From Eutreptiella sp. 'Long Island Sound 2002' (taxonomy: Eukaryota; Euglenozoa; Euglenophyceae; Eutreptiales; Eutreptiaceae): a stretch of DNA of 64,000 bases. Below the pieces are notes generated by a model. It had not been told where the DNA came from, searched no databases, and saw only the letters and a program-made list of their open reading frames with translations. How positions within the stretch are numbered: the stretch's first letter is position 1; each line of letters opens with the position of its first letter. Both the position numbers and the translations under genes were made by a program. Positions 5,101 to 55,555 of the stretch are shown piece by piece. The stretch covers positions 148,998,961-149,062,960 of the forward strand of contig OZ038382.1 in NCBI GenBank assembly GCA_964036045.1, written 5' to 3'.

Positions 5101-5411
5101 CTACGCGCAGTGCGCGTCGTAGTACAAAAACAGAAGAATCCATTCAATGCGAGCACATGTGGACAATGCACTACAAATCACACATAATACAAGCAAAGAC
5201 GCATGCTCCATCATTGGAATCACATGTCATCAGCACAATGGAACCCCATTTCAAGGAGTCCTTGTGGCACCACGGGCGTCACGCGTGCCCACGATGCACT
5301 CGTGTAGCATACAATAGCATAACGTTCCCCACGCCAACGCGTAGGTCCATGCAAATGATATGCATTGAAGAGGACGCCGGCTCTTGCATCGACCAAGCAT
5401 CCCCATACGAG

Positions 5412-19519: not shown

Positions 19520-20230
19520 AGTAAGAATGAGTCACTGCCATGTCCTTCTTGGAGGACTGGATCCAGGCCCTGCCCACCCTAAAACCCTTTTTCTTCTGCT
19601 CACACCTACTTAATCAGGTTTATCTCTCTTTTGAAGTTTCAAGTACACTTACTCAAAGTAACTAGGGTTATAACCCTAGCCCCCCATGAGGTTCACCCCT
19701 ACCACTCAACTGAGCGGAAGTATCTTCCTTCAGGGAGGTTATACCGAAAGAAACTAGGCACTTCATGCCTAAAGCCTTGTAGGTGAAGCCTAGTGGTCCC
19801 CGACCTCAAGACCCCCATACTCGAATGATTCTACCACTTATTGTGCTTCTACGCTTTAACAATTTCCTGATTCAGTTGCTTGGCCAAGTTATATTCTGTG
19901 TCTGGCCTAACTCTTATGCCCCAGGTTCCTAACCAACTCCATTTCATCCAACAGAGTGCACATGAAGTGCTTGATGCTAATTTTGAGGCCAGAGTCATGC
20001 CACGTTTGACATAAAAATCATTTGTTTTATCCAATTGTGATTCAATCTTTGTACGTAAGCTTGCTTTGTCTATCTGCAGCCCTTCTGTGATACACTGGAT
20101 TTCAAAACTATTCATTGATTCGATCAACATCCTGTTCTTGCTCTACTTGCTGCTTTGGTTCTGTTTTTCAACACCAAAACCTGCAGGATTTCATCAAAAC
20201 TATTAGGGCACAAATCAAGGACATCTTTCT
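19520..20230 (+). repeat. Solo LTR with exact 5-bp target duplication
   Basis: 711 bp of AT-richer DNA interrupts LINE copy L2. It begins AGTAAGAATG and ends ACATCTTTCT, the same AG(T/A)AAG...CTT(T)CT termini as the LTRs of the Ty3-type element at 28,450-56,329. GGCCC lies on both sides (19,515-19,519 and 20,231-20,235), and the LINE reading resumes exactly across it. It is therefore a solo LTR of the same or a sister family, left by LTR-LTR recombination. Its body is only weakly similar to the 28.5-kb LTR. Confidence 0.85.
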
Positions 20231-27330: not shown

Positions 27331-28449
27331 AACCAACGGGATGTCAGATGAGGCTGCGGACACGGCTGCCCTTACTTGCCTTACTTACTTACTCTTGCGT
27401 GAGGTGGAGCGACTGGGGAAATGGCGCACCCGCCTGGCTGAGGGGTACACCGCCCCCCTTCGCAAGGAGGGGCCGCTGGGGCCCCTGAACACCGGCCCGC
27501 TCACCGTCCTGTCCATGGTCTACCGACTGTGGGCGGGCTGGCGCCTGGTAGACGCCATTGCGTGGCACGAGGCCTGGGCCCACCCGGCGGCCTTTGGTAT
27601 CTGCCCAGCCAGGAGCGCCCTGCAGGGGCGGCGGTGACACAGGTCCTCTTGCAGCTGTGTTGCCTCCGGGGGTGGGCCGTCGCGGGGATGAGCATCGATT
27701 ACGATGAGTCTTTTGATCTCATCCCCCCAGGCGGTTGTGCTGGCCCTGGCGTTGGAGCTGGGCATGGTCCCGGGCACGTGCCGTGCCCTGGGGACCATGT
27801 AAAAGCAGGTCTGCCAGGCCTTCAAGAACGCAGGGGCCTTTGGCCTATGGTGGCAGGCCATCAACGGCATCCTCCGTGGTCTGCCTCCTGTCGGTGATCC
27901 TGGTGAATGTGCTCACCACGATCTGGAAATGGGAGGTGGACTCCCTGCGCCGTCAAGTATGCGAGCAAACGGCCGCCCTCCCGCCGGCTCTGGACAAGTA
28001 CGCGGCAGACGACCTGGAATCGGGGGCCCTGCTCCCCTTCAAGGATGCCGGCCCCGACTACGCCGTGCTAGGGTTGTTGGACTACGCGGACGACACCCAG
28101 GCGGTGGCCCTGGGCGCGGCCGCACTCCAGGACACGGGCCCCGCAACGGGGAAAGGGCTACCGAACACGGGGCAGGACGTCCGCGTGGACAAGTCCTTCT
28201 CCTGGGTCCAGGGGGAACAAGGCGCTCCGGCGGTGCTGCTCCAGGCGATCCCCATCCCGCTGGCGACGACCTTCCTCCAGCTTGGCGTCGACATCGCCAT
28301 TGGGGGCTCCAAGGCCACAAGACTGGTGTTCTACCGACGCTTGGAGGCGGGGAGGCGCGCCCTGCGTAGCCTGTCCCATCTCTCAACATACGACCTGTGG
28401 GAGCGGGCTGTCAGCACGCTGGTCACCCTGCTGGCACTCCATGGGGTGG
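27331..28449 (+). pseudogene. LINE copy L3, reverse-transcriptase part before the Ty3 insertion
   Basis: Same family as L2: KEGPLGPLNTGPLTVLSMVY, LVDAIAWHEAWAHPAAFG, then after a frameshift LRGWAVAGMSIDYDESFDLI (first palm Asp) and LLDYADDTQAVALGA with YADD intact. Next come DVRVDKSFSWVQGEQGAP and LSHLSTYDLWERAVSTLVTL. The frame is broken at least twice. The sequence stops at CTCCATGGGGTGG, where the LTR retrotransposon enters, and continues at 56,330. Confidence 0.8.
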
Positions 28450-28718
28450 AGTAAGAAAAAGTGTATTTCCCCGCAAAAAGGTTAGCTTTAGTTTTTGTAA
28501 AGAGGCCTAAAGGCATAACACATTTTTATCTTAGTAGTGGCCTATCCAAAAAGGGGTGACAAGACATTTTGACGTATCAAAACCAAGCATTGATCTATGG
28601 ATGTTGTGTGGACCCCTGACACCCCAATTGATTGATCTTATACACCATCTCCTGAACTGACTGAGGCGCTGACCTTGATGCAGAGCCTATACATTTTTCT
28701 ATGTCTTCTCATGAATGC

Positions 28719-28805
28719 TTAGCTATCCTAGTGGTCTGCACCCTAGGGGGCTGAGGCACCTCTTTTTAAGAGGTCCTGGGTTCAATTCCCAGTCAGCCTA
28801 GCTAA
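28719..28805 (+). other. tRNA-like segment with B box inside the 5' LTR
   Basis: An anticodon-type arm ACCTC-TTTTTAA-GAGGT (28,758-28,774) has a perfect 5-bp stem, a 7-nt loop and TTT in the anticodon position. A T-type arm CTGGG-TTCAATT-CCCAG (28,776-28,792) is also perfect and contains GGTTCAATTCC, matching the polymerase III B box. TTAGCTA (28,719) and TAGCTAA (28,799) can pair around the whole. A standard D arm and variable loop are not evident, so it is not a normal tRNA gene. It is probably a tRNA-derived module. Confidence 0.55.
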
Positions 28806-28909
28806 ATAGGAATATCCCATGTGACATGGCAGTGACCTCAGCGCCACAAGCCATGCCCCCTCATCACCTATGGGACCCAAAACAAAGAGCGCGCATCTCT
28901 AGATGACAC

Positions 28910-28917
28910 TATAAAAG
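28910..28917 (+). promoter_or_regulatory. TATA box in the 5' LTR
   Basis: TATAAAAG, conserved in the 3' LTR at 56,014-56,020 as TATAAAA. Confidence 0.65.
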
Positions 28918-29224
28918 AGAAGATGCCCATGTGGGCAGTTTTTCCATGCTTGTAGGATACTTTCTAACTATCTTTTCATAAATCTGTAGTTATTTTGAGT
29001 ATCCATTGTTGCTACATAATCTCCTTTGACTGCAGCCCTTCATGTTGTGGATTTGATCCTGTGGTTCTTTGCCTTGCAACTGTGGGTACTTATTTGGGTT
29101 GATTTCATCAAAGCTTATTTGTTTGGAAAACCTGAACTACATCAAGAAGCAGCAGGAGCAAGCAGGAGCATCAACAAAAAAGTATCATCAAAGCAATCAA
29201 CAGTGAAAGCCTGTTTTAACTTTC

Positions 29225-29241
29225 TGGTAGCAGAGAATTTC
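29225..29241 (+). promoter_or_regulatory. Primer binding site
   Basis: TGGTAGCAGAGAATTTC begins at the last LTR base. TGG matches the CCA end of a tRNA, and TGGTAGCAGAG is close to the initiator-Met type site TGGTATCAGAG common in plant LTR elements. The tRNA identity is inferred. Confidence 0.6.
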
Positions 29242-29320: not shown

Positions 29321-29816
29321 ATGGACACCAAGGACAGTGCCGAGACGACGGGGCCCTCAGTGGCACCAGCCAAGCCAGCGCCAGCGCCCAAACCTGCTGG
29401 TGAACCTGAACCTGAGGAGCTTGTACCTTCAGTGCCCTTAAGTGGGCTGGAGGATGATTCTCTGGAAGGCTTGAGAGCTGCCTTCAGTGGTCTATCCGTG
29501 CGAGGACCTGAAGGCAAAGAGAAGGAGATGGAGAAGCAAGCAGTGGACATGGGAGCCGAAGAGGTACACCCTGGAGATGGATAGGGACCATCCGACGAGG
29601 CGCCCTTCGAGTACACACCTGTGGAGAGCGCGGCGAACGCCTCCGATTTCCCTGCAGCATCCTCTCCAACAACCACCACACTCCCAGCTACACATCCAGC
29701 TACATCCTTGGCCACAACCACTCCACCTATGGCTGAGGGTCTAGGCTTTACTGGAATGCCTTACCCCATCTATGGTGGGACTCCAGCCGCGACTGTGCCA
29801 TCTATGGCAACTGCAG
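29321..29816 (+). pseudogene. gag N-terminal part before the giant insertion
   Basis: ATG at 29,321 opens MDTKDSAETTGPSVAPAK, a Pro/Ala/Glu-rich gag start. The frame passes into the duplicated segment (from 29,443) and meets a TAG at 29,582-29,584 where the second copy has TAC. Joining 29,321-29,442 to the second copy (45,915 onward) recreates one continuous gag, showing that the material between was inserted. Confidence 0.75.
29443..29816 (+). repeat. Left 374-bp target duplication in gag
   Basis: Pairs with 45,915-46,288, same length and orientation, with about 18 mismatches by eye (about 5%). It ends at CTGCAG, where GTAGGTAGGTAGGT starts. Confidence 0.8.
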
Positions 29817-30319
29817 GTAGGTAGGTAGGTCGACTCGGGACTGGGGTTGCCCCGCCGGGGGGTCTTACCAAGGGGCTTTTGCTCACCCACCCACGGCCCC
29901 CACAAAGTGGCTCCTGCACATGGGGGCAGGGTGCTGTTGCCGCGAGCAGTACCCTACAGCGGGTTCTGCCCAGAGAGGTAACCCATGTTCGACCGAAGTC
30001 TTACATTCCTCTCCTTCGGGCGGATGACACGTGGGGGAGGGTCCCATCGCACATCCTCATCAACCTCCGGATTCTGGGGCCCAGGGGCCGGGAGCCAGGC
30101 CAAAGGCCCTGTCCTGCAGGCACCCCCACCTGGGTTGGTTTTCAGTAGCCGTGAGGCCACTTGAAGAAGCACGTGCTACGGAATTCGTATGCCGTGGCTC
30201 ACACTCGCGCCTCCTGACTCGGTCGAGCTTGCGCTCTCCCGGGGGCTCAGGGGTTCGAAGTAGGTCGTCGTGGTTGGTTGGTCAGTCGTCTATTGGTTTG
30301 GTGTAGTCTGGTGACGTTG
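29817..30319 (-). other. 3' end of the giant LINE with CTAC-type tail
   Basis: On the minus strand the last 14 bases are a tetranucleotide run of ACCT/CTAC type, directly against the gag duplication. Short microsatellite tails are known for several LINE clades. No gene is seen in this 500-bp stretch. Confidence 0.55.
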
Positions 30320-31450
30320 GTCGGTCGGTTGCGTTGCGGCAGAGTCACGGTTTTGTTCGCGGACATGGTCGTTGGCGGGCGTGGCGCACCACCGTGTCGC
30401 CAACCCGATGGACGCCGTTCCCGTTTCAACCCGTGCAGGCCTGGCAGGTTTGGTGTTGGCCGGCTTGCGTGTGGTCTGTTTACGATCAAGTGGCGGCTGC
30501 AGCTGCGGTGTGGTCCGTGCGCGGTTGTCTTGGCCACCTCATGGCCGGCTTGGTCTGCGTGGGTTTCGTTGCCCTGCTGCCGGGGGTCGTATCGGTGAAT
30601 GTTGTTTGTGCAGCCGGCACGTCCGTGTCGGCGCTGGCTAGTTGCGTCTTGGTTGGTCCAAGTGCGGCGTAGTGCAGTTTGTCAACGCTGGTTGGCCCCG
30701 TTCATAATGGTAGAGTTGCGATGTTCTGTTGTGTTCGTGGGCATGGTCGTCAGCGGGCGTGGCGCACCACGGTGCCGCCATCCCGTTGGACGCCGTTCCC
30801 GTCTCCACCCGTGCACGCCTGGCTGGTTTGGTGTTGGCCGGCTTGCGTGTGGTCTGTTTACGGTCATGTGGCGGCTGCAGCTGCAGTGTGGTTGGTGCGC
30901 GGTTGTCGCGGCCGCCTCATGGTGGGCTGGGTTTGTGTGCGTTCCGTCGCGCTGCTGCCGTTGGTCTTATCGTCAAATCCCGCCTGTGTAGCCGGCACAT
31001 CCGTGTTGGTGCTGGTTAGTTGCGTCTTGGTTTGTCCAAGTGTAGTGTAGTGTAGTTTGTTAATGTTGGTTGGTCGCGTCTGCAGTGGTAGAGTTACGGT
31101 GTTGCGCTGTGTTCGTGGGCATGGTGGTCGGCGGGCGTGGCTCACCACGGTGTCGCCAGCCAGTTGGACGCCGTTCTCGTACCGGCCCATGCATGTCCCG
31201 CCAATTGGGTGTTGCCTGGTGTGCGTGCGGTCTTTTTATGGTCACGTCGTGTTTGCTGTAGTGGTTTCGTTGGTGCGCGGTCGTGTTAGTCGCCTCTTGG
31301 TTGGTTTGTTCGGCGTTGGTTCCTTGTCGTTGCAGCGGGCGCCTGCGCAGTCGGATTTATTGCGTGCAGGTGTTCTGCTTGTTGCGGTGTTGGTTGGTGT
31401 CAGTTGCGTGGGGCCGGTACGGTACGTTTTTACTGTGCGCCACCATGGGG
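30320..31450 (-). repeat. 378-bp tandem repeat, three copies
   Basis: GGGCGTGGC.CACCAC preceded by CATGGT recurs at about 30,365, 30,742 and 31,120, a regular 378-bp spacing. Surrounding blocks such as GGCCGGCTTGCGTGTGGTCTG are conserved in the first two copies and degenerate in the third. It lies in the 3' untranslated part of the giant LINE. Open frames inside repeat with the array and are not genes. Confidence 0.85.
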
Positions 31451-32177
31451 GAGAAAAGGAATGATAAGTGGTTGGACCGCTGTAAAAACCTTTTCCAAAT
31501 TCAGTGCCCTTGTCCCTGCCCCATGCACAACCCATCATCTGGTACTTCGCGGTGCTCTGTGGCCGTCCTTCCAGTTTCGCCTGCGCCATTCATATGTACA
31601 CCCCCCGCCGGTGGCAAGGCCCCGCCGGTCCCCCTTGGTGCGTCCCTGTGCTCCCCATGGGAGCCCCAGGGTGCTGTTCCGGCTGGGTGTTGCGGTGCTC
31701 GTGTTCTTGTCTGCCTGCCTGCCGTGCGCCATATCGTGCCGTGTTTTGCGGGTCAGGTGGCTGGCGTGCCTGTGTCGCAGTGCTGAGTTTGGTGGTTAGG
31801 ATGGTTAGGGCGGTTCGGCTCGTGCTGTGGTGCCGGGACGTTCCGTCCGGCGTGGTGAGCTGGGCTTGGCGTAACACATCCGTGCTCGCTGGCAGGGGGT
31901 CGGCGTGGCCCCGTGTGGCGAGCCTGTGGTCCCCCGCGTGCCCCGGGTGGGGTCTCGGACGTGGAGAATACCGGGCAGTGTTGAAGCCCCCCTCCTGCTT
32001 ATTGACGCTGTTAGCTTTCTGCTGGGAGTGTGCCCCTCGTACCATTCACGTAGGTTATATGTGCCGTAACCCCCCCGGCGTTCCAGTCGTTTAACGTTCC
32101 CCGAGGAGATGTGCGCCGGTCCCCGCGGTGCACGTATCCCTGGATGCTCGCCTTGGAAGGTAATACTCTGGACGATT
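31451..32177 (-). other. Between the two 3' tandem arrays, no gene supported
   Basis: A minus-strand frame at 31,590-32,045 is open, but rich in His/Thr/Arg and without recognisable sequence. It is probably untranslated. Confidence 0.4.
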
Positions 32178-33695
32178 ATTCGATAACATTCTCGTGGTCA
32201 TCGGCCCGGCTGTGGGTCCCGGGTGTTTGGCTGGGCCCTTTGCCCGACCCCTTGTGGAACCGGCTCGCGGGAGAGGAGGGTTAGGTGGAAGGTCGGGTCC
32301 GGGTGTGGCGCCGCCCCTTTCTCTGTTGCAGGCGGGTTGCGGGGGTCTGGGAAGCGTGGCCCCCGCCCGGGGGATGTAGGAGGAAGTCGTTGGGTTTTTG
32401 TTCGTGTTCGACACCACGGGCTGCTAAGGCTAGCCTCCACTCTCCGGGTATCTGTTGCATGTGTCGGGCAGGTTGACGTCTTTCCCGTCGGTGTGTCCGA
32501 CCGACAGGCGTTGCTGGGGTGTGTTGCGTGGCCGGGCGTCGTTGGGTTGTACGAGGGGTCCTTTTGGGCGAGGTTGGCTCGCCCGGGGTCGTCGTGGTTT
32601 ATGGCCGAGTGCGCAGCTGTTGGTGTGACGTCCATCGCCCGGCTTTCAGGTGGGAGGAGGTGATCCCGCAGCCGTCGTGTCGTCTCCTCCCTTGCGCATG
32701 GCCGGTGCGGGACTCGCGTTGCGCGTGTGCGGCTGCGCGTCGTCGCTGCAGGTCCTGTGGCCGGGTGCAGCTCAGGGCCCTGGGGGGTTTCCCACGCTTC
32801 GCACAAGGGCGCTGCGGAGGGTAGTGAAGATTTCGTGCACAAGGGCCGTGTGTGCCGCCTGGGCCTCCGTATCAGTGCGGATGGCGGGCTGCAGTCGTTC
32901 GCCCAGCACTAGCGCCCGTATCTGGCGGATCGCGGCGTTCGATAACACCTCCGTGGTCATCGGCTCGTCTGTGGGCCCCGCGTCTTCGGCTCGCCCCTTT
33001 GCCCGGCCCCTCGCGGATCCGTTACGTGGGGGAGGAGGGTCAGGTGGGATGACGGGTCCGGGTGTGGCGCTGCCCCTTTCTCTGTTGCAGGCGGGTTGCG
33101 GGGTCCCGGGAAGTGCGGCCCCCGCCCGGGGCATGTGGGAGGAGGTCGTTGGGGTTTTTTTCGTGTCCGACACCATGGGTTGTTAACACTAGCCTCTACT
33201 CCTCGGGTGTCCGTTGCACGTGCCGGGTAGGTTGACGCCTTCCCCGCTGCTGTGCCCGGTCGACAGGCATTGCTGGAGTGCGTTGCGCGGCCGCGCGTTG
33301 TTGGGTTGTACAAGGGGCTCATATTGGGCGAGGTCGGCTCGCCCGGGGTCATCGTGGTTCTTGGCCGACTCTGCAGTCGTTGGTGTGACGTCCAACGCCC
33401 GGCCCTCCGGCGGGAGGAGACGATCCCGTGGCCGCCGTGCCGTCTCTTCCCTTGCGCATGGCCGGTGCGGGACTCGTGTCGCGCGTGTGCGGCTCCGCGT
33501 CGTCCCTGCAGGTCCTGTAGCCGGCTGCGGCTCAGGGCCCTGGGGGCTTACCCACGCGTCGCACAAGGGCGCTGCGGAGGGCACTGAAGATTTCGTGCAC
33601 AAGGGCCGCGTGTGCCGCCTGGCCCTCCGTTGCAGTGCAGATGGCGGGCTGCAGTTGCCCGCCCAGTGCGAGCGCCCGGATCTGGTGGATCGCGA
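32178..33695 (-). repeat. 759-bp tandem duplication covering the end of the protease ORF
   Basis: CGATAACA at 32,181 realigns at 32,940. GCCCCTTTCTCTGTTGCAGG and the following blocks repeat with the same offset, and GATGGCGGGCTGCAG occurs at about 32,880 and 33,638. The duplicated part includes the C-terminal IRQIRALVLGERLQPAI segment of the Ulp1-like protein, so the 3' end of that gene and its trailer were duplicated together. Confidence 0.85.
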
Positions 33696-34844
33696 AGACG
33701 GGGCACAGGTTGGGCGCATTGGGGGTCTCTGCCGTCTGTTCCGGGATTGCTTCCAACTGCTGCCGGCCGTCAAGGTAGAACCTCCACGTCGCTGACCACG
33801 CCCTGGTGTGTGGCCAGCGGCGTTGCGCCGACCGCCAGAGGCAGTAGAGGGCATGGTCTGGGTGCCAAGTGCCGGCCGTCTACGACATGATGGCCGTCAG
33901 GGGGTCCGGGGGCTGGCCTGGGAGCAGGGGGGTGGGGCTGTCTGGCAGGTCCGTGGTCGCCAGGAGCATGGAGTCGACGGCCTCCAAGCTCCAGTGGCTC
34001 TCCTGCGGGTGCGCGATGATCTGCACTTGGTAGTAATGGCCATTCTCCAACACGGTCATGGCGATGGTGCCGGGGTCACGTTCGCGCGGTGGAGGCGCCG
34101 CGCGCGCCGTCTCTGGGTAGCGTGCTGCCAGGCTCGTGAGGTTGTCTCCCCTGCTACGGGCGGTCCCGCTTTCCCATGCCGCCAGGCCTTCGTACGGCGG
34201 GATACGGAGGGTTTCGGGCCCCGGTGGCGGGGCGGCCCGCTCCCGGCCACCGGTGCTGGGCGCGGGTCTGGGGTCCATCGGCGGCCCAAGTGTGGGACCC
34301 ACACGCCCCCCTGGGCTGGTTGATGGATGTTGAACCACCAGATCCACGCTTCGACAAGGTCGTCAGAGACCTGTGCCCCGGGGATGACGAGCGCCTGAAG
34401 CTGCCGCACAAAGATTTTGGTTGTTGCGGCCTGTGGCAGGGGGACCACGGCGAAGAGGCTGTTCGGGTCGACGTCAGGGAGTTGTTCCCGAAGGGTTGCC
34501 ACCAGCTCGCTCGAGGGTGTGGAAGCGTGGATGCCGTAGAGCGCTCTCAGTTCCGAGTCGTCGAAGGGACCCGTGCCCCTTTGCTGCGGTGGTCGGGGGG
34601 GTGGGGGGAGCCTGGCCACCCGGTCCTGGTCCAGCGCTGCGCTAGCCGGGGAGGGGTGCCATGAGGTGGTGCCAGGGTGTCCCCCAGGCACGTACGCGGT
34701 GGAGGGTTCCTGTTGCTGGGGCACCGAGCAGGGCGTGGCGGCGGGCAGTGGGCCAGCGGACTTCTGAGGGCCAGAAGTCCCTGTCATTTCTGCGTCCGCC
34801 CTTGGGCCGCTCGCGTCGTGCCCCGGTTGCTGCGATGTGCTCAC
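33532..34844 (-). pseudogene. Ulp1/C48-like cysteine protease ORF of the giant LINE
   Basis: Two pieces in different frames join near 34,270. The first reads VSDDLVEAWIWWFNIHQP and GGVWVPHLG. The second reads GTIAMTVLENGHYYQVQII and HPQESHWSLEAVDSM, and after an in-frame TAG (33,880-33,882) FYLDG, IPEQ and NAPNLCPVFAIHQIRALALG. This follows the Ulp1 order: an N-terminal LVEAWIWWFN helix, a His-Trp-x-Leu histidine, an Asp, a Gln and a Cys in an N-x-x-x-C-x-VF context. The usual Asp-Cys-Gly reads Leu-Cys-Pro, so activity is doubtful in this copy. Ulp1-family enzymes cleave SUMO or related modifiers. The family call rests on motif order by eye and needs a profile search. Confidence 0.5.
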
Positions 34845-35938
34845 TGTGGCTTGGCGGTTTCGGGCCTGCGGGGGGGGGCTGTCCCCCCGCTTCTTGCGCA
34901 GGCCATGGGTCGGCCGCAGGCTCCCTTGGTCGCGTGTCCGTGGCGTGTGGTCCCCTCAACAGTGGGTTGGCCGCTGACCCTTGGGGGGGGGGCGGTGGAC
35001 GAGCTGTATGCTCCGCCCACCGCCCGGCGGGGGTCCGTGTGAAGCGCTGCCTGCCGCTCGCGCTCGACCGGCGTGAGAATGGTGGGGATGTGCGTCTGTT
35101 CGGTGCGGGGCCTCTTGGACCGGCGTCGGGGATCGGTGGTAGATGATGTTCGCCGGGCGTGGGGGTCGCAGGGGCCCTCGTGGTCCCTGTCCATACCCTC
35201 ATGGAGGAAAACTCGCCGGGCCGCGGGAGGTGGCGTGCGGCTGCAAGGACGGGATCGGCCAGGGTTCCTTGTCTCTTGGCGTTGTTGCAGCGTGCTGCCT
35301 TGCATCCCCGAGGCGTGGGGACTGCCCGGGCTTCTCTGCGGGGCGAACGGTTGCAGGGGGCTTCTGTATGTGCCAGAGGGGGAACCCATCCCGGGTGGTG
35401 GCCCCCGTGGGCGTTCCGGGGAGTTTCGGCGCGCCGCCTGCCTGAGAGGCTCCGGGACGTCTTGGGACCGCGGCCGCCGGTAGTCCCAGGCGTGTCCTTG
35501 GCAGCCCAGTGACCCAGGGACTTCCCAGATATCATGGTCCTGCATGGTCGCACGGATGCGCAGGGCGGCGCGCTGGTGCCACTGCCAGTGGAGTCTATTC
35601 ATTTCATCCGGGTTGTAGGCCCCCATATGCGCCATGAGCCGTGTGGCCAGATAGTGCAATCGGCCGGTGTGGTCCATGGTGGCGGGGTGCGTGTGCCTCG
35701 TCTGATGGCCAAATGTGACGTCTGCCATGGTGCGGGTTCCGTCTGCGAGGTGGCGGGACCGCGAAGTAAGCAGCCATTGTATGCGGACTGCCAGGGCGAG
35801 CTGCTCCCCTGCGGTAGGCCTGGGGACCCGGAGGCCCAGGTCTTGGGTCGCCGCTTGATCTGCTTGTTCGCCGGGGCGGTTGGCGTCGGCCTTCAAGCGT
35901 GCGTAGTCCAGGTGCCCGATCCCCTAGCACACCAGGGG
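34841..35938 (-). pseudogene. Unassigned ORF of the giant LINE
   Basis: Open from an in-frame TAG near 35,928 to a TGA at 34,841-34,843, about 360 codons. The N-terminal part is protein-like: GIGHLDYARLKADANRPGEQ, EQLALAVRIQWLLTSRSRHL, TGRLHYLATRLMAHMGAYNP and MNRLHWQWHQRAALRIRATM, probably helical. The C-terminal half is Pro/Arg-rich disorder. No ATG was found at the start; the preceding TAG could be a mutated CAG. The stop overlaps the GTG at 34,844 that opens the next frame. No family recognised. Confidence 0.4.
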
Positions 35939-37022
35939 TAGCGCGGGGATGCACAGAGCAAAAGAAAAGAGATCAGGTGCCCCCGCCCCCAGGGCGGGGC
36001 GGTCCCCGGCGGCGGGCCGGTAGGCTCGCTAGCGGTGTTGGTGGCCGCTTCCACGCGCGCACCCTCTCCTGTGGCGCCGCGCTCGTCCGCAGTCCGGTCC
36101 GCCGCGCCGCTCGCGGTCGCCTGCTCCTCACCCACAGCGGTAACCTGCCTGAGGGCGGTGTAATCCCCCGTCGGCCGCGCGCTGGGGCGTGTCGGGTGTG
36201 GCCTCCCGGGTCTCTGACCCCGCGCGGGTTTCCGGTGGACCTTGCTGCGGCGCCTCCCCCGGTGTGCTTGCGTCTGCGCGAAGTGCTAGGTCCGCCAGGG
36301 GGGCGGCGCCCGCGCGATCTGTGGCTGAGGGTCGGTTGAGGCCGTCCTCACACTCGGTGTCCGGAGTTGGTCACTCAGGTTCCCTGTCAGGCTGGTTAGC
36401 GGCCAATGCCTCGCCGCCTCCGTGTGCCGCTATGTTCAGTGGGTCGGCACTCTGCATTGACGGCCGGACCGCCCCCCCTGCCAGGCTCCCCCATTGGTGT
36501 TAGCGTTCGTGTCCGTTGTGGGGGCCCCTGCATTTCTTCCGCGCCCACCGTGGGCTCCCCGCGCTGCGGTTGGGTCGGCAGTGCAGGCGGTTCAGCTTCA
36601 TCGCTCGCCGGTTGCGTTGCCCCCCGGGCGTGGCCTTCTGCCACGGGCGGCAGCTCGGGTCGGCTTCCCGGGCCCGCGGGCTGTGGGGCGCCCGCCGGGG
36701 CGGCGGTGCGTGCCGGGTCTGGGCCGGGGGCCCAGGCCGGGGGCTGGGCGACCGGGAGATGACGGCTCTGCCGGCCGCGCCGTCGGCCGGGTTGGTGGGG
36801 CGTGGTGCCGCTGGGGCGCCAGTCCGTCGTGCGTTGTGGCCAGTAGGTCCTCTGCGCCAGACGTCGCCTGAGCCTGGGGGATTAGGCCCTCGGTGGGGCC
36901 GGGGGTGTGGGGGTGCACGGTGTCCGGAGTGCCGGGTGGTGGTGGTGTCGGTGGGGGTAGCGATGTGTGCCTGTGTGGGGGGGCTGTCGGGCGGCGCGTA
37001 TGCTGGGCCCGTTGCTGGCCGG
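35939..37022 (-). other. Pro/Ala/Arg-rich stretch of the giant LINE, no firm gene
   Basis: Several overlapping minus-strand frames are open but are all low-complexity Pro/Ala/Thr/Arg. It could be a disordered extension of a neighbouring ORF or untranslated spacer. Confidence 0.35.
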
Positions 37023-38375
37023 TCAGGTGTGCCATGGTGCGGGCGGGGATCCGAGTGTGCCTGTGTTGCTGCCGCTTGGCTGGCTGCCGGCCGTGGACCG
37101 TGCGCGGGCGCGACGGGCGGTGTTAGGGGTTGCGGGCTTCCTGTGGGGCTCGGGGCCGGTTCCCTGTGCGGGTGTGCCCACCGCCCCCGTATTCGTGGGG
37201 CTGGGTACGGCTCTGCTCCCGGCAGGTGATGCCCGGTCTCCCCGAATCCCTGTGGCCGTGTGGTGTTGTGTTGGTTGTCGTTGCGCCGCCCGTTTGGATG
37301 CACGCTCTTGTCGGGGGCTCTGTGGCGTGCCGGCCCTCGATGGTGCCGGATCGCCTGTGGTCAGCGTGGCGTCGGTGGCGCGCTGTTGGTGTCGTGCGGC
37401 GACGGGTAGTGGGGGGGCGGAGGTGGACGGGCTGGGGGACGTTGAGGACGTTGCGCCCAATGTTCGGGCCCGTACATTCGTGGCCCTAGTTGCTGTCGAG
37501 GCGCAGGATTGGGGCGGGAGGGTGGTGATGGTCGCGGTGGTTCTCCGGGGGGAATGGGATGAGCCGTCGAGCCGGGTACCTCTGGCCATCTTCCTGGCCA
37601 CTGCCGCATTGCCGTACGTGCCCGGTTGCTGCGGCGGGACGTGCCGCTGCTGGGCACGCTGTACCAGTGGCTGGAGGCTGCGTGGGGGGGGGATGCCCCT
37701 CCACGTGAGGTAGGCCACCATCAGCCTCTCGGTCGCCCCCGGGGTCATGGCCCCGCCGCGGTGGAAGAATTCCCCCCACTCGCCGCCATGGGCGCTGCAG
37801 GCGATGCCCATCGCCCATTCCGCGTCCCCCACCAGCCAGCCGAAGGCGATCGGGAGGCGGGTGGTGAGGGTGACGACGATGGTGCCGTAGTTGTTGTGGT
37901 TCATGGGGGTGACGGGTCGTGGCGCGTCGTCGTAATGTTCCTGGTCGGGGACGTAAATCGTGGGGTCTGCCCCCGGGTCTGGCAGCGCCCAGGTTGGTGG
38001 GCGCCAGGGGGGGCGGGGGGGTGGTGTCGCCGAGTCCTCGTCGGTGACGACGTCCAACCACTCGGCATCGGGGCTGTCCTCCCTGGCGCCGTCGTTCCAG
38101 ACGTTCTGCCGGACCAGAGTGCGCAGTGTCTGGAGTGTGAAGTCTTCGTCTTGCGTTTCGCGCGGCGGCGGAGCTGTGCAGAGTCGATGCGGTCGCCGGC
38201 AGAGTGGGCACGACAACAAGTTCGCGATGCACTGTCTGCAGAACCAGTGCAGCTGCTCAGTTCCGCCGCAGCCGAGGTCATGCCCACGAAGCGGGTTGCC
38301 ATCTTGGTTGTTCACCTCCATGCAGACCCCGCATGGGCTCCCTGGTCGCGGATGTGGAGCTTCACCTTCGGGCAT
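37023..38375 (-). CDS. RING finger protein ORF of the giant LINE
   Basis: An intact 450-codon frame with a true ATG, 83 bp after the end of ORF2. The RING signature near the N-terminus is C15-x2-C18, C36, H43-x2-C46-x2-C49, C56-x2-C59, seen as PCGVCMEV, LGCGGTEQLHWFCRQCIANL and SCPLCRR: a C3HC4 arrangement with a slightly long C-to-H spacing. A second folded-looking region (about residues 150-235) contains NYGTIVVTLTTRLPIAFGWL and WAMGIACSAHGGEWGEFFHR. The rest is Ser/Thr/Pro/Arg-rich. RING domains usually act as ubiquitin or SUMO E3 ligases; the target is unknown. It is the least damaged frame of the element. Confidence 0.75.
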   Translation of the reverse strand: MPEGEAPHPRPGSPCGVCMEVNNQDGNPLRGHDLGCGGTEQLHWFCRQCIANLLSCPLCRRPHRLCTAPPPRETQDEDFTLQTLRTLVRQNVWNDGAREDSPDAEWLDVVTDEDSATPPPRPPWRPPTWALPDPGADPTIYVPDQEHYDDAPRPVTPMNHNNYGTIVVTLTTRLPIAFGWLVGDAEWAMGIACSAHGGEWGEFFHRGGAMTPGATERLMVAYLTWRGIPPPRSLQPLVQRAQQRHVPPQQPGTYGNAAVARKMARGTRLDGSSHSPRRTTATITTLPPQSCASTATRATNVRARTLGATSSTSPSPSTSAPPLPVAARHQQRATDATLTTGDPAPSRAGTPQSPRQERASKRAAQRQPTQHHTATGIRGDRASPAGSRAVPSPTNTGAVGTPAQGTGPEPHRKPATPNTARRARARSTAGSQPSGSNTGTLGSPPAPWHT

Positions 38376-38458
38376 CCTGAGGAGAGGTATTGTTTGTACG
38401 ACGATCGGGCCTCTACACGGGCAGATGCCTGGCGGTCGCCGCGGGCCCTTGCCTGTGG

Positions 38459-41400
38459 CTAGTCGCTAGGCTGTGCATGATGGTAGTGGATGAGGAGGTT
38501 ATAATACATGCGGCGGTCGTGGGATGTTTGTTGTGCTTCCTGTCCGTATACCTGGACGCAGTGCTGTAACTGTGCGTCCGCCCTCTTGATGGCGGTGAGC
38601 TGCATGTGACGTATTGTGGCCCTAGGTTCTGGGGCGTGGTCGGCGACGACCCTGTAGAGCTGGAGTGGCACCGCTCCCCTGAGCACCGCCTTCCTGATCT
38701 CCGGTTGCCGCATCAGGCGCCGAACCTCATTTGCCGGTGGCGTGGCTGGGCCCCATCCGGCATGTTGCGCTCTTGTGTTCTCCGGTGTCCACGTGGCCAG
38801 GTGGTTTTCCCCTTGGGCTAATGGGCAGTGTCTGAAGTGATCCCATGTTTCTGGCTGTTGGAGATGGCAGGGGCATATGGTGTATTCTGGGGGTATGTCT
38901 ATACCTCGCCGGGCCTACCAGCGTGCCACCCTGTCTAGGAGGGGGAGTTGTTCGAGCAAGAGTTGGGCACGTTGTGTCTGCAGATGTACCGGTATTAGGG
39001 ACGGGTCAAGAGCCCAGAAGTAAAATGCGGTGCGCATTGTATGTTGGAGATGGCTCAGAAGGGCGCAGTCAGCTTGGCTGCCCCGAACGTGCGCCATGGT
39101 GCGGACGGGTTGTGGGTAGTGGTATGCCCGTCTTGTGTCGTTATAGATGCGATTGTCTGGCAACCAGGCTGGTGGTTCCCCGGGGCGTGGGACTGGTGGC
39201 ACGTGTTGGAGGTGTGTGTGCATGTGGTCTCGTAGCGGTGGGTCCTCGCTGTCTGGCATATGCTCGGCAAGCTGGTTGCGGGCGTGCAAGTCTATGTGTC
39301 CGTTGCCCAGGCTATACCGATGAGAGTCTTGTTTGACGTGATGTAGGACGACGTGTTTGGGGAGGCGCCGCAAGGCTGTCCAGAGGTGTAGGGCCTGGGT
39401 GCCCAGGCTAGAGTCAGTCGCCTTCTGCAGGGGCTGTGGTGCCGCCATGCGGACGATTTGGAAGTCCACCGCTGCGTCTACCACTACCCATACATGGTGC
39501 GTGTGCTCACGCGGTTCTGGATGGGTGTCATTGACGGCGTCCATGACGATTACCAGTGTCTTCAGTTCCCCGTGAGGTGAGGCCCCGAGGATGGTAGCCC
39601 CTGTGAGGTGGTGTTGGTGCAGTCGGCCTGTCGTGTCTACTTTCAACTCCAGAGCTGCCCCCCCGGCCGCTGGGATGAGGCTTGTAGTGCCGGAGGCATC
39701 CGCGAAAATGTCTGTGTTGTGGTTGTCCGGGTGCGGCAGGCGGCAAGGCATCGTTGGTTGGTAGGCATGGATGTGTGCTCCCCGTTCCGTGGTGGCCCAC
39801 GGCGTGTTGGTGTCTGGTTGGAGTCTCCAGGTAGCATACACGCCCAGCCCCTGGCGGATGATCTCGGTTGCCGCCGGGTTCATGCGGACATAGTCGTTGT
39901 TCCTCTCGTGGCCCTGTGTCAGAAAGCCGTACACATACTGGAGCAGGTACGCTGTCTGCGGGTGGAATGTGGTCCACTCGACCGTCTGCCAGTCCTGTAC
40001 TTGGGAGCATCGGTGTTTGACCGGGTAGGCGGGGGCCTCCGGCGTGGCGCTGCGGTGTTTGGCTAGCACCGGGAAGGTGATGGCCGGGTGTTGGGTGTCC
40101 CACTTTTCCTGGTGGAATCTCCATTCCGCCTCGGCGCTGGGGCCCCACGCCACTGTGGCCGTGTCCCTCTCCGCGGCCCGTTCGAAGTGCGTGTGTAGCC
40201 ACCGGTGTTGTTGCGGGGTAGCGTGGGCCGTTGGCATGGGGTGGTAGCGCGCCAATAACTGGAGGAGGGGCCACGGGGTTGCCAGCGCGTGGGGCCCACA
40301 TCTCCAGCAAGTGGTGGGGGTGCCCGTCAGCTTGTCTTGCGGCAGTGGCGGTGGACAGAAGGGGCGCGCCGTGGGTGGCGGTAGCATCCACAAGTTGCCC
40401 CCTGCTCTGCCCGGCCGCAATGTGCCTTTGAGCCCGTTGGGCGCTAGGTGGAGTACCGCTGGCGGCGTGGCACCGGGTACATATTCCACTTGCTCCAGTG
40501 GCCGTTGGTGGGCCTGGTTCCCTCGCGGTGGGCACGGTAGCAGTGGCCGCTTGTGCGTGTTCCAAAACAGGTTGTACGCCTCACCTACCTCCCCATCGGT
40601 TGGTTGGGGATGCCCTGTTTGGGTGGTCGCACTGCGCATGTGGTTCTCCAGGAGTGATTTGTTTGGCCACTCCGGGTGTTGTAGGAATGGGACGTGGTAT
40701 GTGCTCACTCTTTGGAGGGCTTGCATCTGGTTTGGGGTGACCGGCACGAGGTGAAGGGTGGTGCCCACCAGGTCCCGACTGGTGCTGCTTCCCGTTGGTC
40801 CACCCCCCACATCGGTGTGAAGGACCGCCAGAGGGCCGGTTTCCCTGCACCGATGGTTCGTTTGGATGACGTGCTGGTAGTTGGGTAGCAGGAGTTGTAG
40901 GTGGTTCCATATGCGGTTCTCCACCTTGGTGGGGAGGCCCCGCTGGTGAAGTATGTATTGGGGGCAGGTGTTGCGATGGTATTGGGCCTCCCGCAGCGTC
41001 AGCGTGAAGACCTCTCATGCCTCCGGCTCATGATTGTGCATGAGACGATGCAGCTGGGCCGCAGTGTGAGCTGTGTACGCGTTGTTGACGAGGTGATCGG
41101 TGTTGTCTCCGTAGTACAGTGGCGATGCCGCGCGTACCCTTGCAGGTAGCGATGTGGGCCGGTGGCCGTGGATGGTCCACGCTGGTCGCACTGTGGTAGC
41201 AGCCGCTTGCAGCATGTGTTGGGGCTGCGTTAGGTGCATGGCCTGGAATCCTACAGCTACGTTGGACACGGCTTGTAGGAAGTATGCCAGGGCCTGGGTG
41301 GAGAGTGCCCTGATGCGTGCTATGACCAGTGCCTGTGTCAGCTGCCGTATCAGGTTTGGTGGTAGGGTGACCCCGCCTGCGGTGGCCGCTTGTTGGACCC

Positions 41401-43790
41401 CCAGGTAGGTGGCTGTGTTTACTGGGTTCATGGGCGCGTCCCCGGGGCGGAGGGGCGGCGGCGGTGCATTATGCACCATGGTGGCAGATTTGACGTTGTG
41501 TACCAGCAGCTGGTTGCCCTCCAGATAGGTGGTGACGACGTGGAGGACTTTGGTGGCTCTGGTGGGGTCCGGGGTGGTCGGCAGGGGTTGACTTGCGGTG
41601 GCGGTCACCACCGCCATGTCGTCCGCAAACGCCAGGAGCGTGGTCCGTAGGGGATATGGTGCCACGTCTGGGTATGTGCGTCGGATGTAAAACGCCAGCG
41701 GGAGGGTGACGAGTAGGAAGAGGAATGGGCCTTCCGCACCCCCCTGCGGGACCCCACTGGCGGGGTGGACCCATGGGGTGGTGCCCACGTCGGTTTTTAT
41801 GGCTTACATGCGGGTGGCGAGGTACGCTTGCAGGAAGCCCTGGAAGAAGAGTCCCATGTGCTCCCAGACGGCCCGAAGGAGGCGGTGCGGGGTGTTGGGG
41901 AAGGCCCCTTTGACCTCCAGGGACGTGATGATGAGGCTGATCGGGTCCATGTCCACGACGGCGTCTTACATAAATATGGCCTCCAATGGCGACCTACCCG
42001 GTATGGCCCCCCACATTGTGGGCGGTACAGCCCGGTACACTGCCGGGGCCACCCGTTTGAGGATGAGCATCCATATGAGTTTGGCTTCCGTGGTGGCGCA
42101 CATGATGGGTCTCCAGTTGTCGGGGTTCGCCCAGTCGCCTTTCTTATACAGCGGGTGTAGCAGGTTTGCCCTGTCGGGTGGCACGTCCATTTTCCCGATG
42201 GCGATATCCTACAGGCGCGCGGCCAAGTGCCTCTTCAGGTTCAGCGGGAGCCTACGGTAGAGCTCCACCGGGAGTCAATCCACCCCCGGGGTTTTTCCCG
42301 GTTGTAGTTTTGTACAACACCTCATGGAGCTCGCGAATGGTGAACGGGGTTCGGTGCATGTCTCGTCGCTGTGTCCAGTTGTAGAGTGTCGGCAGGTGGG
42401 ATATCAGTTCCTCTGTGTACGCTGACAGCTCGCCATCCTCAGTGTTGTGTTGGCGCAGGAAGCTGTTGAGGACTTCTTCCAGGACCACCTTGGGATCGTT
42501 GGTCACTGTGCTGTCCTGTAGGCACACCGCTTTGATGCCTCGGTAGCCCATCTCCCCCAGAACCTTGTCCACGTGTTTCAGGGATTTGTAGGGATTGGGG
42601 TTTTGAAAGTGGCGTTGTTGTTCTTGCGCCAGTTCCTTTGCCGGCGGATGTGCCATTCTCTGAGTCGCCGGCGTGTGGTGTCCAGTCGTGCAGCAATTTC
42701 CTGGGCGTCATGTTGGGCTTGTAGGTCATGCGAGTGCACTGCCGTGTGTAGTGCTCGCTTGTCGTGCCATATGGTTGTGACAAGGGATCGTAGGTCTTGA
42801 TGCGGGGTGGTATCGGCCTGTGTTCTGCGTTGTCCGTTGAGGCCGCATGCCGTGGTCGCTTGTCGCATGGCGAGGGTTAGGTCCGTCTTGTCTTGCTGGC
42901 CTAGGATGCGTTGTACCGTGCGGTAGTACGCTACCCATTTGTGGGTGTCGTGCTCTCCTGGCGGCTTGATTATTGGTTGCTCCTCGTGGTCCATGCCATC
43001 CCTGGAGGCCGGGGGTACCTGAAGTACCTTGATTTATATCTCCAGGGGTGGATGTCCGGTGACCTTGGATGGTAGGTCGTGGTATTGCGCCCGTGTTATC
43101 TCGACGTGTGCCGAGTCCGCGTAGCAGAGGTCGATGCAGGAATCTGCCGTGCAAGATTTCGGTGGTCTGTGCGAGGGCTCTCCTCGTAGAGAGGCTGTGA
43201 GGTCCTGCAGGCCCAGGTGCTGCATGGCCACTTGCACCGCTGCGTCCTTGGGCATCTGTCGCCCTCCGCGATCGTCCGCTGATGGGGCTGCCTTGAAGTC
43301 TCCTATTATGACAGTCGGCTTCATCATGGCAAGTTGTCGGTAGGCCTCCATGAGGTGTTCGAGGAATGTCTCTGTGGCGTCTCCAAAGGGGACGTGGACG
43401 TTGATGAGCGTCAGTTGCCACGTTGGGCCTACCAGTTTGTATGCCGCTAGGCGGCCTTCCACCCCGAGGTGGTGGTGGACGTGCACTTGGACTTCACGTT
43501 TGTGGGATAGGGGAAACCCTTGACCCACGTGGTGCGGTATTGGTGTCCCGTCCTGGTGAGGACGGGGGTTAGGTTGGGGCAGACTGCATGGGTTTTCAGG
43601 GCCTGTTCCTGCCACACCATGGCGTTGGGTCGCATTTCGCCATGATAGGTACGTCTTGTAGGTCCGGAGCTTTGGCCGCGTTGTACAGGGCGCCTGGTTC
43701 GTTGAGGGATATGAGACTGACGAGCGCAGTTGTGACCTCGTGGGCGCGCGCCTTGGTGGGCCCTGGGGGGTCCGTGGCGCGGCGTGGTAG
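38459..43790 (-). pseudogene. ORF2 of the giant LINE: endonuclease, reverse transcriptase, RNase H, zinc motif
   Basis: Endonuclease: WQLTLINVHVPFGD, VIIGDFKAAPSADD (catalytic GDFN has become GDFK), SCIDLCYADS and TGHPPL (43,034-43,500). Pre-palm: GYRGIKAVCLQDSTVTNDP and FTIRELHEVLYKTTTGKNPG (42,252-42,656). Palm: PLYKKGDWANPDNWRPI, SLEVKGAFPNTPHRLL, ASGVPQGGAEGPFLF and LLAFADDMAVV (41,015-42,200). RNase H: DIFADASGT, HGELKTLVI, VVVDAAVDF and SLGNGHIDLHARNQLAE. The C-terminal zinc-type motif is ICPCHLQQPETWDHFRHCPL. Stops lie at 43,034 (TAA), 42,209 (TAG), 41,966 (TAA), 41,804 (TAA), 41,015 (TGA) and 38,915 (TAG). Frameshifts lie near 43,530, 42,620 and 42,260. Apart from these shifts, one frame serves all domains. 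Confidence 0.85.
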
Positions 43791-43793
43791 TAG

Positions 43794-45914
43794 TCATTGT
43801 CCCAGGCGCAGTTTGTGGTTGATCGCTCTGGCCACCTTTTGTTCTTCCGGTATATCTGGCTCCTCCAGCCATGTCTGCGGCACGTCACCTGTCCAGATGG
43901 TGCCCGGTGGTACCTGGTTGGCGGGTGTGCGGAGCTGCACCGGGCACTCCGGGAATCGTCTGTCGTCCCAGAGTTCGAGGTTCAAGGTCTCCACTTTTTC
44001 GCCCCACTCTGGGAGTGCTTGCCACTTGATTTTCAACTGTAGGTTGCCATGTTGGCCCTGTGTGGCCAGTCTGCCCTGTATCTTGCCCCGGAACCATACA
44101 AATTGTTTCGGTTGTCCTCTAAGCGTGGCTCCGTACACTCCCTGTACTTCTGCGCCGTCTGGCCATTCGGGGTGCATGGCGGCACGTTCTGCCGGCGTGA
44201 AGAATGGACACGCTGGGGCCTTCGGCTTCGGTTGTGGACCGCGTGGCGATGGCGCTGGGGCCGCTTTGGGCTCCAGTTTGGGCCGTGGCCCCGGGCGGGG
44301 CCTCGGTTTGGGCTGGGGTTGTTCTGGTGCCGGTTTCAGGGCCGGCTTCGGTGCGTCGCGGCAGAATATGCTGTACGCCGGTCCCTGTCCCTCCTGTGGC
44401 CTGTGCATATCTCGAAGCTGATTTGCGTGTTCTTGTAGGCTGGCGGTGCGGAGTTTGAGAGTTCGCTCCGTGTCCGTGGGCCAGGACATCCAGCGCTGCG
44501 CCTGTGCTGTCCCGTGCTTTTGCACATAGACTGCCAGGTTGCCCTTGAGTGTAAGCCAAGTCTCGGGCAGTGTGGTGTCCGTGGCTGGGGCATCCACTGT
44601 CCAGTGCCTCGCCGTTTTGAGGGCCAACCAGTGCGCCATGGGGTGGTTGGTGTGGTGGGTGGAGTGATTAAAGCGGTCCCCAAGTGCCAGTGGGGTCGCT
44701 GGTTTCGCTTCCGGTGTGAATATGTGGACCCTGTCTGTTGTGCCCGTGGCGTTCCACTGTGCTACCCACCATGTGTGTTGGTGGCACGTTAGTGTCACCG
44801 CGGGGGTATCCGGGGGCCTGTCAATAAGACCCGCCGAGTCAGTGACCTTCAGACCTTCGGTTTTCCGGTCGTGCTGCTCCGGTGGACTGGTCAGGGTCAG
44901 CAGATGGTTCACAAGATCCGGCGTCAGGGTGTCTTCTGTGTCCTGTACTCTGTCCTTACGTGCCGTGGGGTGGCCCACGGCAACGTCCCACGCGTCCGTG
45001 GTGGCCGCCAGGGTGTTGGCCGCCAGGGTGATGACAACGTCCGTCAGGCCCTCCACGATGAAGTACTTTTCCCCCGCCAGGGTGGTCGGGAGGCCGGCTG
45101 TGTGTTTCATGGTGAGGTGTAGTAGCGCCCTGTTGGGGCCTGGGGCGTTTGGGTCCATGGGCCTGGGGTCGGGTGTGCCGTGTCTCGCCAATGGGTGCCG
45201 TGGTTTGTCGGTGTTGGGTAGTCGTGGCCCCAGGGCCATGTGGTGTACCTGATCGAGAGGGATGGCTTGGCCCGTGGTTTCGCCCGTCGTGAGGTACACT
45301 CCTTTGGCGCCTGTTGCCGTGTTTAGGTATATACCTGGGAGTGGGGCGGGTTGTGGGGGCAATGGTTGGAACAGGAAGTGGGGGCAGGGGTGGCCGCAGG
45401 GGGGGTCCCCGGGCCTCAGCCGTGGGCAGGGGCCATCCATGCCGTGGGGTACGGGATATAGTATGTAGGGCCCCGCCACCCTGCGTAGTTCTTTGGGGTT
45501 CAGGGTGTTCAACCACCCCCCAGCCTGATGGTGATAGAGCCCTGGTCGATCCAGGTGGCTTGGTCGCGGTCAATGTCTTGGTGTAGGGCCCTTCTGATGG
45601 TGCCCCACGTTCGGCGGTGGGTGGGGTCATCTGAGGTGGGGCACCCCGTGTCTTTGAGAGGCATTCTGGCGTTTGAGAGGGCGGAGTTTATGATGTTTAG
45701 GGGGGGTGGGTTGGCGTGGGTGCCGGTGGTGGTGGTCCCCGCGGGTTTGATGTTCTGGCGTGGTACTCGCCTCCCGTGGAGGGGTTGGTGCCGGGACGAG
45801 TCCGGGTGCCAGATGGGGGCTGGTAGGTCCCTGTATCGTGCCCAGGTGTACACCGTGTATGCCGTGCCCTCAGTGTCGGCCTGCAGTCTGCACGTGGACT
45901 TCCGTGCCTCGCTG
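43794..45914 (-). pseudogene. ORF1 of the giant LINE (gag-like), one frameshift
   Basis: Open from the 5' junction at 45,914 to a stop at 43,794 except for one shift at a run of six C (45,516-45,521). Before the run the frame ends DQGSITIRLGG; after it the next frame continues LNTLNPKELRRVAGPYILYP, so removing one base restores the protein. The product is about 700 residues. It has a globular N-terminal two-thirds (GEKYFIVEGLTDVVITLAAN, TCHQHTWWVAQWNATGTTDR), a Pro/Lys linker (PKPRPRPGPRPKLEPK), then CPFFTPAERAAMHPEWPDGA. No zinc knuckle is seen. It overlaps the start of ORF2. No ATG exists between the junction and the first protein-like sequence. Confidence 0.65.
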
Positions 45915-46288
45915 TAGGCTCGGGGACGATTCTCTGGAAGGCTTGAGAGCTGCCCTCAGTGGTCTATCCTTGCGAGGACCTGAAGGCAAAGAGAAGGAGA
46001 AGGAGAAGCAAGCAGTGGACATGGGAGCCGAAGAGGTACACGCTGGAGATGGATACGGACCATCCGACGAGGCGCTCTTCGAGTACACACCTGTGGAGAG
46101 CGCGCTGAATGCCTCCGATTTCCATGCAGCATTCTCTCCAACAACCACCACACTCCCAGCCACACATCCAACTACATCCTTGGCCACAACCACTCCACCA
46201 ATCGCTGAGGGTCTAGGCTTTACTGGAATGCCTTACCCCACCTATGGTGGGACTCCAGCCGCGACTGTGCCACCTATGGCAACTGCAG
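45915..46288 (+). repeat. Right 374-bp target duplication in gag
   Basis: Pairs with 29,443-29,816. Here the gag frame has no TAG and continues past the duplication into SEPVASSSTYTGAPEPMP, so this copy remained attached to the body of the element. Confidence 0.8.
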
Positions 46289-55547: not shown

Positions 55548-55555
55548 AAGTGGGG
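55548..55555 (+). promoter_or_regulatory. Short polypurine tract
   Basis: AAGTGGGG lies directly before the 3' LTR, the expected position of the plus-strand primer. It is short and contains one T. Confidence 0.4.

What the first reader, a model, noticed from the sequence alone, without database searches (positions are those of the whole stretch)
29817..45914. A 16-kb LINE carrying both a RING finger gene and a Ulp1-like protease
Downstream of a standard ORF1 and an endonuclease/RT/RNase H ORF2, the same insertion encodes a C3HC4 RING protein (37,023-38,375), an unassigned protein, and a protease with the His...Asp...Gln...Cys order of the Ulp1 family (33,532-34,844). A retroelement carrying both a putative ubiquitin/SUMO ligase and a putative SUMO-type protease would be a self-contained modifier system, perhaps against host silencing. 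Flanking duplications argue that the genes travel with the element. The functions are inferred from motifs.
Basis: partly seen in the sequence, partly recalled or inferred. Interest (0 to 1): 0.88.

Follow-up and report, generated by a model that had tools for sequence, protein, structure and literature searches.

The report
Giant Euglena LINE with RING ORF3
A very large, repeated jumping gene of a Euglena genome carries, beside the usual copying enzymes, a third giant protein with a RING-like zinc finger that is kept by selection; the second part, claimed to be a SUMO-type protease, could not be recognised as one, and the copies that could be checked sit between unusually long duplications of their target.

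Summary
Window 29,817-45,917 (minus strand) is a 5'-truncated copy of a large LINE in a 2.28-Gb genome with 2,580 exact copies of the (recalled) Euglena spliced leader. RING and "protease" travel with ORF2: 19 listed RING-protease pairs, none in another arrangement; ORF3 DNA at 18 of 20 sampled ORF2 copies that had no listed partner. The window copy is broken. Both ends of ORF3 show purifying selection (dN/dS 0.40 and 0.46; shifted frames above 1). The Ulp1 reading is not supported: 0 of 52 members match Pfam C48, profile comparison gives probability 1.2%, the named Gln is missing from most copies; yet C48 models find real C48 genes in this genome. His, Asp and Cys are mostly kept, so a far-diverged protease is not excluded. 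The RING has well-kept ligands but stays below every Pfam cut-off. Both structure models are unusable. New: in the 3 copies with both ends located, target-site duplications are 372, about 840 and 1,406 bp.

The parts
29817..45917 (-). 5'-truncated copy of a giant LINE; 5' end at about 45,917, 3' end with a short (CCTA)n tail at 29,817
   Evidence: homology of the C20, C8 and C17 copies ends at window 29,815; flanking repeat
29445..29816 (.). target-site duplication, left copy (inside an LTR-type element)
   Evidence: 352/372 identical to 45,917-46,288
45917..46288 (.). target-site duplication, right copy
43794..45569 (-). ORF1, open 591 codons, 5' part lost by truncation; no Pfam match
38459..43981 (-). 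ORF2: APE-like, reverse transcriptase, RNase H-like (by eye), C-terminal Cys/His motif (by eye); several frameshifts and stops in this copy
   Evidence: RVT_1 1.4e-18 in the C20 copy; LINE-1 ORF2p among the best PDB matches
37023..38465 (-). ORF3 N-terminal part: RING-like finger C-x2-C-x17-C-x6-H-x2-C-x2-C-x6-C-x2-C, then a linker
34841..37023 (-). ORF3 middle (Pro/Ala/Thr-rich linker and a conserved region, about 35,923-35,600); out of frame in places in this copy
33532..34841 (-).
32179..33700 (-). two tandem copies of a unit of about 760 bp that includes the end of ORF3
   Evidence: families D7 and D9
30350..31405 (-). 378-bp tandem repeats in the 3' untranslated region

Best explanation
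This is one broken, 5'-truncated copy of a repeated giant LINE of Euglena (over 16 kb). Shown by sequence: it has ORF1, an RT-bearing ORF2, and a third ORF of about 1,650-1,800 codons whose first Met lies about 120 bases after the end of ORF2 in the two copies where that was measured; the RING-like N-terminus and the C-terminal domain of ORF3 are conserved and under purifying selection; insertions end in a short (CCTA)n tail and, where both ends were located, are flanked by very long target-site duplications. Inferred: ORF2 nicks the target and primes reverse transcription at the 3' tail; the second strand is cut or joined 0.4-1.4 kb away, and filling leaves the long duplication. ORF3 is an accessory protein that the element itself needs. 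Its RING-like finger most likely acts as a ubiquitin- or SUMO-ligase module on host or element proteins during retrotransposition, with the C-terminal domain as a binding or targeting module rather than a shown protease.
For: Order and spacing of ORF2, RING and C-terminal domain. One ORF3. Selection: C-terminal domain dN/dS 0.46 in 18 stop-free copies, 0.30 around the conserved Cys; RING region 0.40 in 20 copies; shifted frames 1.08-1.46 in both. RING ligands conserved; RING models are the commonest weak Pfam matches. LINE nature. Ends, tail and TSDs. Host.
Against: No RING model reaches its cut-off, the finger's structure model has pLDDT 40, and one of the three long ORF3s (C1) has lost one ligand. 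No activity was tested. In the three long copies the whole ORF3 shows dN/dS 0.72, little below the shifted frames (0.86, 1.17), so selection on the linker is not shown. The 30 copies used for dN/dS are the 30 best of 99 scored matches, and two of the 18 stop-free ones (L008, L009) look like copies of one segmental duplication. Two of 20 sampled ORF2 copies had no element DNA at either expected position. TSD length rests on three copies; two more (C17, C9) showed no repeat in the stretches fetched, without both ends being located. APE and RNase H lack a Pfam match above cut-off.
Confidence: 0.6

Rival explanations
1. One reading: RING ligase plus Ulp1/C48 protease, together a self-contained SUMO/ubiquitin modifier system against host silencing.
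For: His258, Asp279 and Cys369 are mostly kept (141/149, 132/149, 113/120); a Gln pair 18-19 residues before the Cys is nearly invariant (Q350, Q351); hhalign aligns its HW..VDSM stretch to the HW stretch of real C48 proteins with E 0.045; the low-confidence model has three strands before and a helix after the Cys, as in C48 (recalled); dN/dS is low around the Cys. NeSL and Utopia LINEs carry Ulp1-like proteases (PMC4640811, passages).
Confidence: 0.12
2. ORF3 is a structural or nucleic-acid-binding protein (an additional ORF1/Gag-like protein); the zinc finger binds RNA, DNA or its own kind and has no ligase role.
For: The finger departs from canonical RING spacing and no RING model passes its cut-off; most of ORF3 is Pro/Ala/Thr-rich; LINE ORF1 proteins often carry zinc fingers (recalled).
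Against: The commonest weak Pfam matches are RING families; the element already has an ORF1.
Confidence: 0.25
3. RING and protease block are host genes or another mobile element that happened to insert next to one LINE copy.
For: A few gaps are longer (4.5-6.8 kb), some ORF2 hits have a listed partner only at 7-29 kb (5 of 30), and 2 of 20 sampled copies showed none.
Against: Same order and strand in all 19 listed pairs, near-constant spacing in 16; no other arrangement within 30 kb in the lists; ORF3 DNA in 18 of 20 sampled ORF2 copies; homology of copies runs from ORF2 to the 3' tail.
Confidence: 0.03

Closest known systems
APE-type LINEs with RNase H (I / R1 / Jockey / Tad group; recalled, no tree built)
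   Same: ORF1, then ORF2 with APE-like, RT, RNase H-like and a C-terminal Cys/His motif; 5' truncation; short 3' tail repeat
   Different: third ORF of about 1.7 kilo-codons with a RING-like finger; total over 16 kb; TSDs of 372-1,406 bp in the three copies resolved
NeSL and Utopia LINEs with Ulp1-like protease domains (PMC4640811, passages read)
   Same: LINEs for which a protease of this family is described
   Different: there the protease is N-terminal in the single protein of restriction-like-endonuclease LINEs; here the claimed domain is in a separate ORF3 and does not match C48
Ginger1 and Mutator transposons with Ulp1 or OTU domains (PMC2836005, passages read)
   Same: mobile elements with a de-modifying protease domain proposed to aid transposition
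   Different: DNA transposons; recognised domains; no RING in the passages read
RING finger E3 ligases (C3HC4)
   Same: eight conserved Cys/His ligands in C3HC4 order, CPLC end
   Different: six residues between ligand 3 and the His; below all Pfam cut-offs

Membership tests
LINE (non-LTR retrotransposon, APE type) | LINE-type reverse transcriptase | tested here: met
   RVT_1 1.4e-18; PDB: 8c8j 'RNA-directed DNA polymerase' 2.4e-6, LINE-1 ORF2p 4.2e-6, R2 3.2e-4
LINE (non-LTR retrotransposon, APE type) | APE endonuclease upstream of RT | tested here: inconclusive
   Exo_endo_phos_2 only E 0.042, below cut-off; GDFN- and GHRPL-like motifs read by eye in L107
LINE (non-LTR retrotransposon, APE type) | no LTRs, 3' tail repeat, TSD, 5' truncation | tested here: met
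   the long flanking repeats differ between copies (C20 duplication and C8 3' flank have no match in the window), so they are target DNA, not LTRs
LINE with RNase H | RNase H domain | tested here: inconclusive
   no Pfam match; D-E-D and SH...D motifs by eye
LINE clade (I/R1/Jockey/Tad etc.) | position in an RT tree | not tested
   no named reference sequences were gathered
RING finger (C3HC4) | eight zinc ligands conserved in order | tested here: met
   20/22, 20/22, 24/24, 25/25, 25/25, 25/25, 22/24, 24/24
RING finger (C3HC4) | match above a curated profile cut-off | tested here: not met
   best E 0.011
RING finger (C3HC4) | cross-brace fold | tested here: inconclusive
   AlphaFold2 mean pLDDT 40
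RING finger (C3HC4) | E2-dependent ligase activity | not testable with these tools
   needs an assay
Ulp1/SENP protease (Peptidase_C48) | match to PF02902 | tested here: not met
   0 of 52 members; the model works on this genome
Ulp1/SENP protease (Peptidase_C48) | conserved His-Asp-Gln-Cys | tested here: not met
Ulp1/SENP protease (Peptidase_C48) | Ulp1 fold | tested here: inconclusive
   mean pLDDT 36

The most novel reading that the evidence does not exclude
A LINE family has evolved a third, RING-bearing giant protein (possibly with a C48-like fold too diverged to see) that it needs for spread, and it integrates by a form of target-primed reverse transcription in which the two target-strand events lie hundreds to over a thousand bases apart; the RING protein may act on host repair or replication proteins to make that possible.
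Probability: 0.15. Interest if true: 0.8.

Novelty: new variant of a known kind. Interest (0 to 1): 0.55.

Why it matters
If ORF3 is a working ligase, a LINE would encode its own tool to modify host or element proteins, which would make element-host conflict through ubiquitin or SUMO directly testable in a LINE. The long target-site duplications bear on how LINEs complete second-strand cleavage. The element may also account for part of the 'unknown' repeats of the Euglena genome (32.7% unclassified, LINEs 1.5%; PMC11252322, passages read), though its share was not measured here.

Tried and rejected
Not supported: Ulp1/C48 membership. Rejected: three separate genes. Rejected for the copies examined: block not linked to the LINE. 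Led nowhere: structure prediction of the C-terminal domain (pLDDT 36) and of the finger (pLDDT 40), so no fold search was run; Pfam on ORF1, the middle and ORF2 pieces; a viral-contig scan with part of ORF2 (no match); a search for long ORF3 among public proteins (6 hits, lengths 987-1,238, source 'ena', none named). C17 and C9 copies for TSDs: in C17 the element's 5' end probably lies upstream of the point homologous to the window's 5' end, and no repeat was found between 4.8 kb upstream and 3.2 kb downstream; in C9 neither end was found. One search was a faulty dN/dS run (loci on the minus strand not turned) and is discarded. Paper searches; none of the titles and abstract starts listed describes a LINE with a RING ORF3 or this Euglena element; the library is open-licence only.
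Full report
Where it lies. The window is G000:C5:148998961-149062960 of a 2.28-Gb genome in 2,205 contigs. The recalled 26-base Euglena gracilis spliced leader occurs 2,580 times exactly (1,233 + 1,347) and 0 times in the reversed control; three of the six contig ends fetched are TTAGGG telomere repeats. The host is therefore most likely Euglena gracilis or a close relative; a published assembly is 2.37 Gb (PMC11252322, abstract start and passages). The element sits in what looks like an LTR element on the plus strand, with terminal repeats of 784 bp, 92.9% alike (28,448-29,231 and 55,554-56,335). That reading is an inference from these repeats and a CCHC-like motif; Pfam found nothing in the pieces scanned.

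The observation. ORF2 and ORF3 of this copy are broken by frameshifts and stops. RVT_1 is clear and the PDB sequence matches are LINE-1 ORF2p and R2. APE is only a weak match, and RNase H was read by eye and has no Pfam match.

One ORF3, not three genes. In copies C20, C8 and C1 the finger, middle and C-terminal domain lie in one stop-free frame of 1,840, 1,675 and 1,705 codons. C1 ends at the usual stop, C20 runs on past it, and C8 stops about 40 codons early. The first Met lies 119-120 bases after the end of the ORF2 frame in C1 and C20. The other five frames hold 15-34 stops, longest run 421; 500 mononucleotide shuffles of the C20 ORF reached 699 codons. Among the 129 scored finger hits, nine have an open frame above 1,200 codons with no stop inside the match; two of the nine (on C23) have equal scores and may be one duplication. 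One search aligns ten sequences, some partial, over finger, linker and middle.

It belongs to the LINE. The C-terminal-domain search scored 99 of 26,546 first-look candidates and 99 matched; the finger 89 of 97,171 and, with a second query, 129 of 2,948; ORF2 64 of 13,946; the 3' end 40 of 1,807. First-look numbers are not copy numbers. Between the lists of 89 and 99 there are 19 finger to C-terminal pairs within 30 kb, all on one strand and in one order, 16 with a gap of 2,344-2,480 bases and three with 4,485-6,794. Between 129 and 99 there are 26, five of them with long gaps. Of 64 ORF2 hits, the window's own included, 30 have a listed partner downstream, 25 of them at the regular distance and 5 only at 7-29 kb; 34 have none. 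I sampled the first 20 of the 34. Element DNA was at the finger position in 17 (one partial), plus one showing a later part of ORF3; at the C-terminal position in 16 (13 inside that domain); at either in 18; two had none.

Selection. The C-terminal domain in the 30 best-matching copies has dS 0.154, dN 0.067, ratio 0.44; in the 18 stop-free ones 0.46, against 1.14 and 1.32 in shifted frames, lowest at codons 161-200 (0.27) and 361-400 (0.30); the first 40 codons show none (1.01). Two of the 18 (L008, L009) look like one segmental duplication (equal scores). The finger region in 20 copies gives 0.40 against 1.08 and 1.46. The whole ORF3 in only three close copies gives 0.72 against 0.86 and 1.17, which is weak.

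RING. The ligands are C50, C53, C71, H78, C81, C84, C91, C94 (C20 numbering), kept 20/22, 20/22, 24/24, 25/25, 25/25, 25/25, 22/24, 24/24; the region's mean is 0.90. C1, one of the three long ORF3s, has lost C91. Five Pfam RING families match 18, 17, 16, 15 and 11 of 20 members weakly; best E 0.011, none at cut-off. The structure model is unusable.

Ulp1. No C48 match in 10 single proteins, in a long ORF3, in 52 members with max E 10 (filters drop most matches above about 0.1), or in PDB with a profile. PF02902 finds 39 matches in this genome, best 8.9e-23, so the model works here; none overlaps the 292 listed element hits, the nearest is 10 kb from one. A profile of nine of those against the element's profile gives probability 1.2%, E 0.045 over 22 columns that pair an HW stretch of each; the element's alignment has an effective depth of only 1.8, so the test is weak. 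Against my reading: Gln350 and Gln351, 18-19 residues before the Cys, are nearly invariant in A2, and the poor model has strands before and a helix after the Cys. A diverged cysteine-protease fold is not excluded.

Target-site duplications. In C20 the 1,406 bases after the (CCTA)n tail equal (99.6%) the 1,402 bases that end at the element's truncated 5' end. In C8, 839 bases (96.9%) end at the 5' junction, starting 78 bases into the 3' flank. In the window it is 372 bases, 94.6%. So the 3 copies with both ends located have long duplications; C17 and C9 were tried and their ends could not be fixed, and no repeat was seen there. The C20 duplication and the C8 3' flank do not match the window, so these are target DNA, not LTRs. 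For comparison, new human L1 and zebrafish ZfL2-1 inserts in DT40 cells have 15- and 5-bp TSDs (PMC4245944, abstract start in the listing). Longer L1 TSDs in cell culture are recalled, not checked. The window's duplication differs by 5.4%, the surrounding LTRs by 7.1%, as expected if the LINE came second.

Comparison. Utopia-1_TSP and NeSL LINEs of nematodes carry N-terminal Ulp1-like proteases (PMC4640811, passages), and Ginger1 and Mutator transposons carry Ulp1 or OTU domains (PMC2836005, passages). I found no report of a LINE with a RING-bearing ORF3 in the listings, nor of this Euglena element, within an open-licence library only.

Verdict. Observation confirmed; a LINE with a selected, RING-like giant ORF3 is well supported; the SUMO-protease half is not. 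New variant of a known kind.

Noticed in passing
29,445-29,816 and 45,917-46,288; also L033/L034/L105 and L035/L106: Target-site duplications of 372, about 839 and 1,406 bp flank three copies of the LINE, far longer than the 5-15 bp reported for two other LINEs.
   Followed up: partly
27,446-28,436 and 56,333-56,851, compare 19,220-21,512: Another repeat with an RT-like YADD motif appears split by the LTR element: its two parts match nearly contiguous DNA at 19.2-21.5 kb, so three layers of nested insertion seem present.
   Followed up: partly
1-2,000: Tandem repeats with a period of about 209 bp in GC-rich DNA.
   Followed up: no
30,350-31,405 and 32,179-33,700: Two sets of tandem repeats (378 bp, about 760 bp) in the 3' part of the LINE; the larger unit carries a second copy of the end of ORF3.
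   Followed up: partly
L107:1161-1576: In another copy an open frame continues upstream of the point where the window copy begins, so the full element is probably longer than 16.1 kb.
   Followed up: partly
G000, 2,580 places: Of the exact spliced-leader 26-mers, the 100 or so listed (all on C1) lie mostly singly and far apart rather than in arrays, perhaps retrocopied mRNA ends.
   Followed up: no
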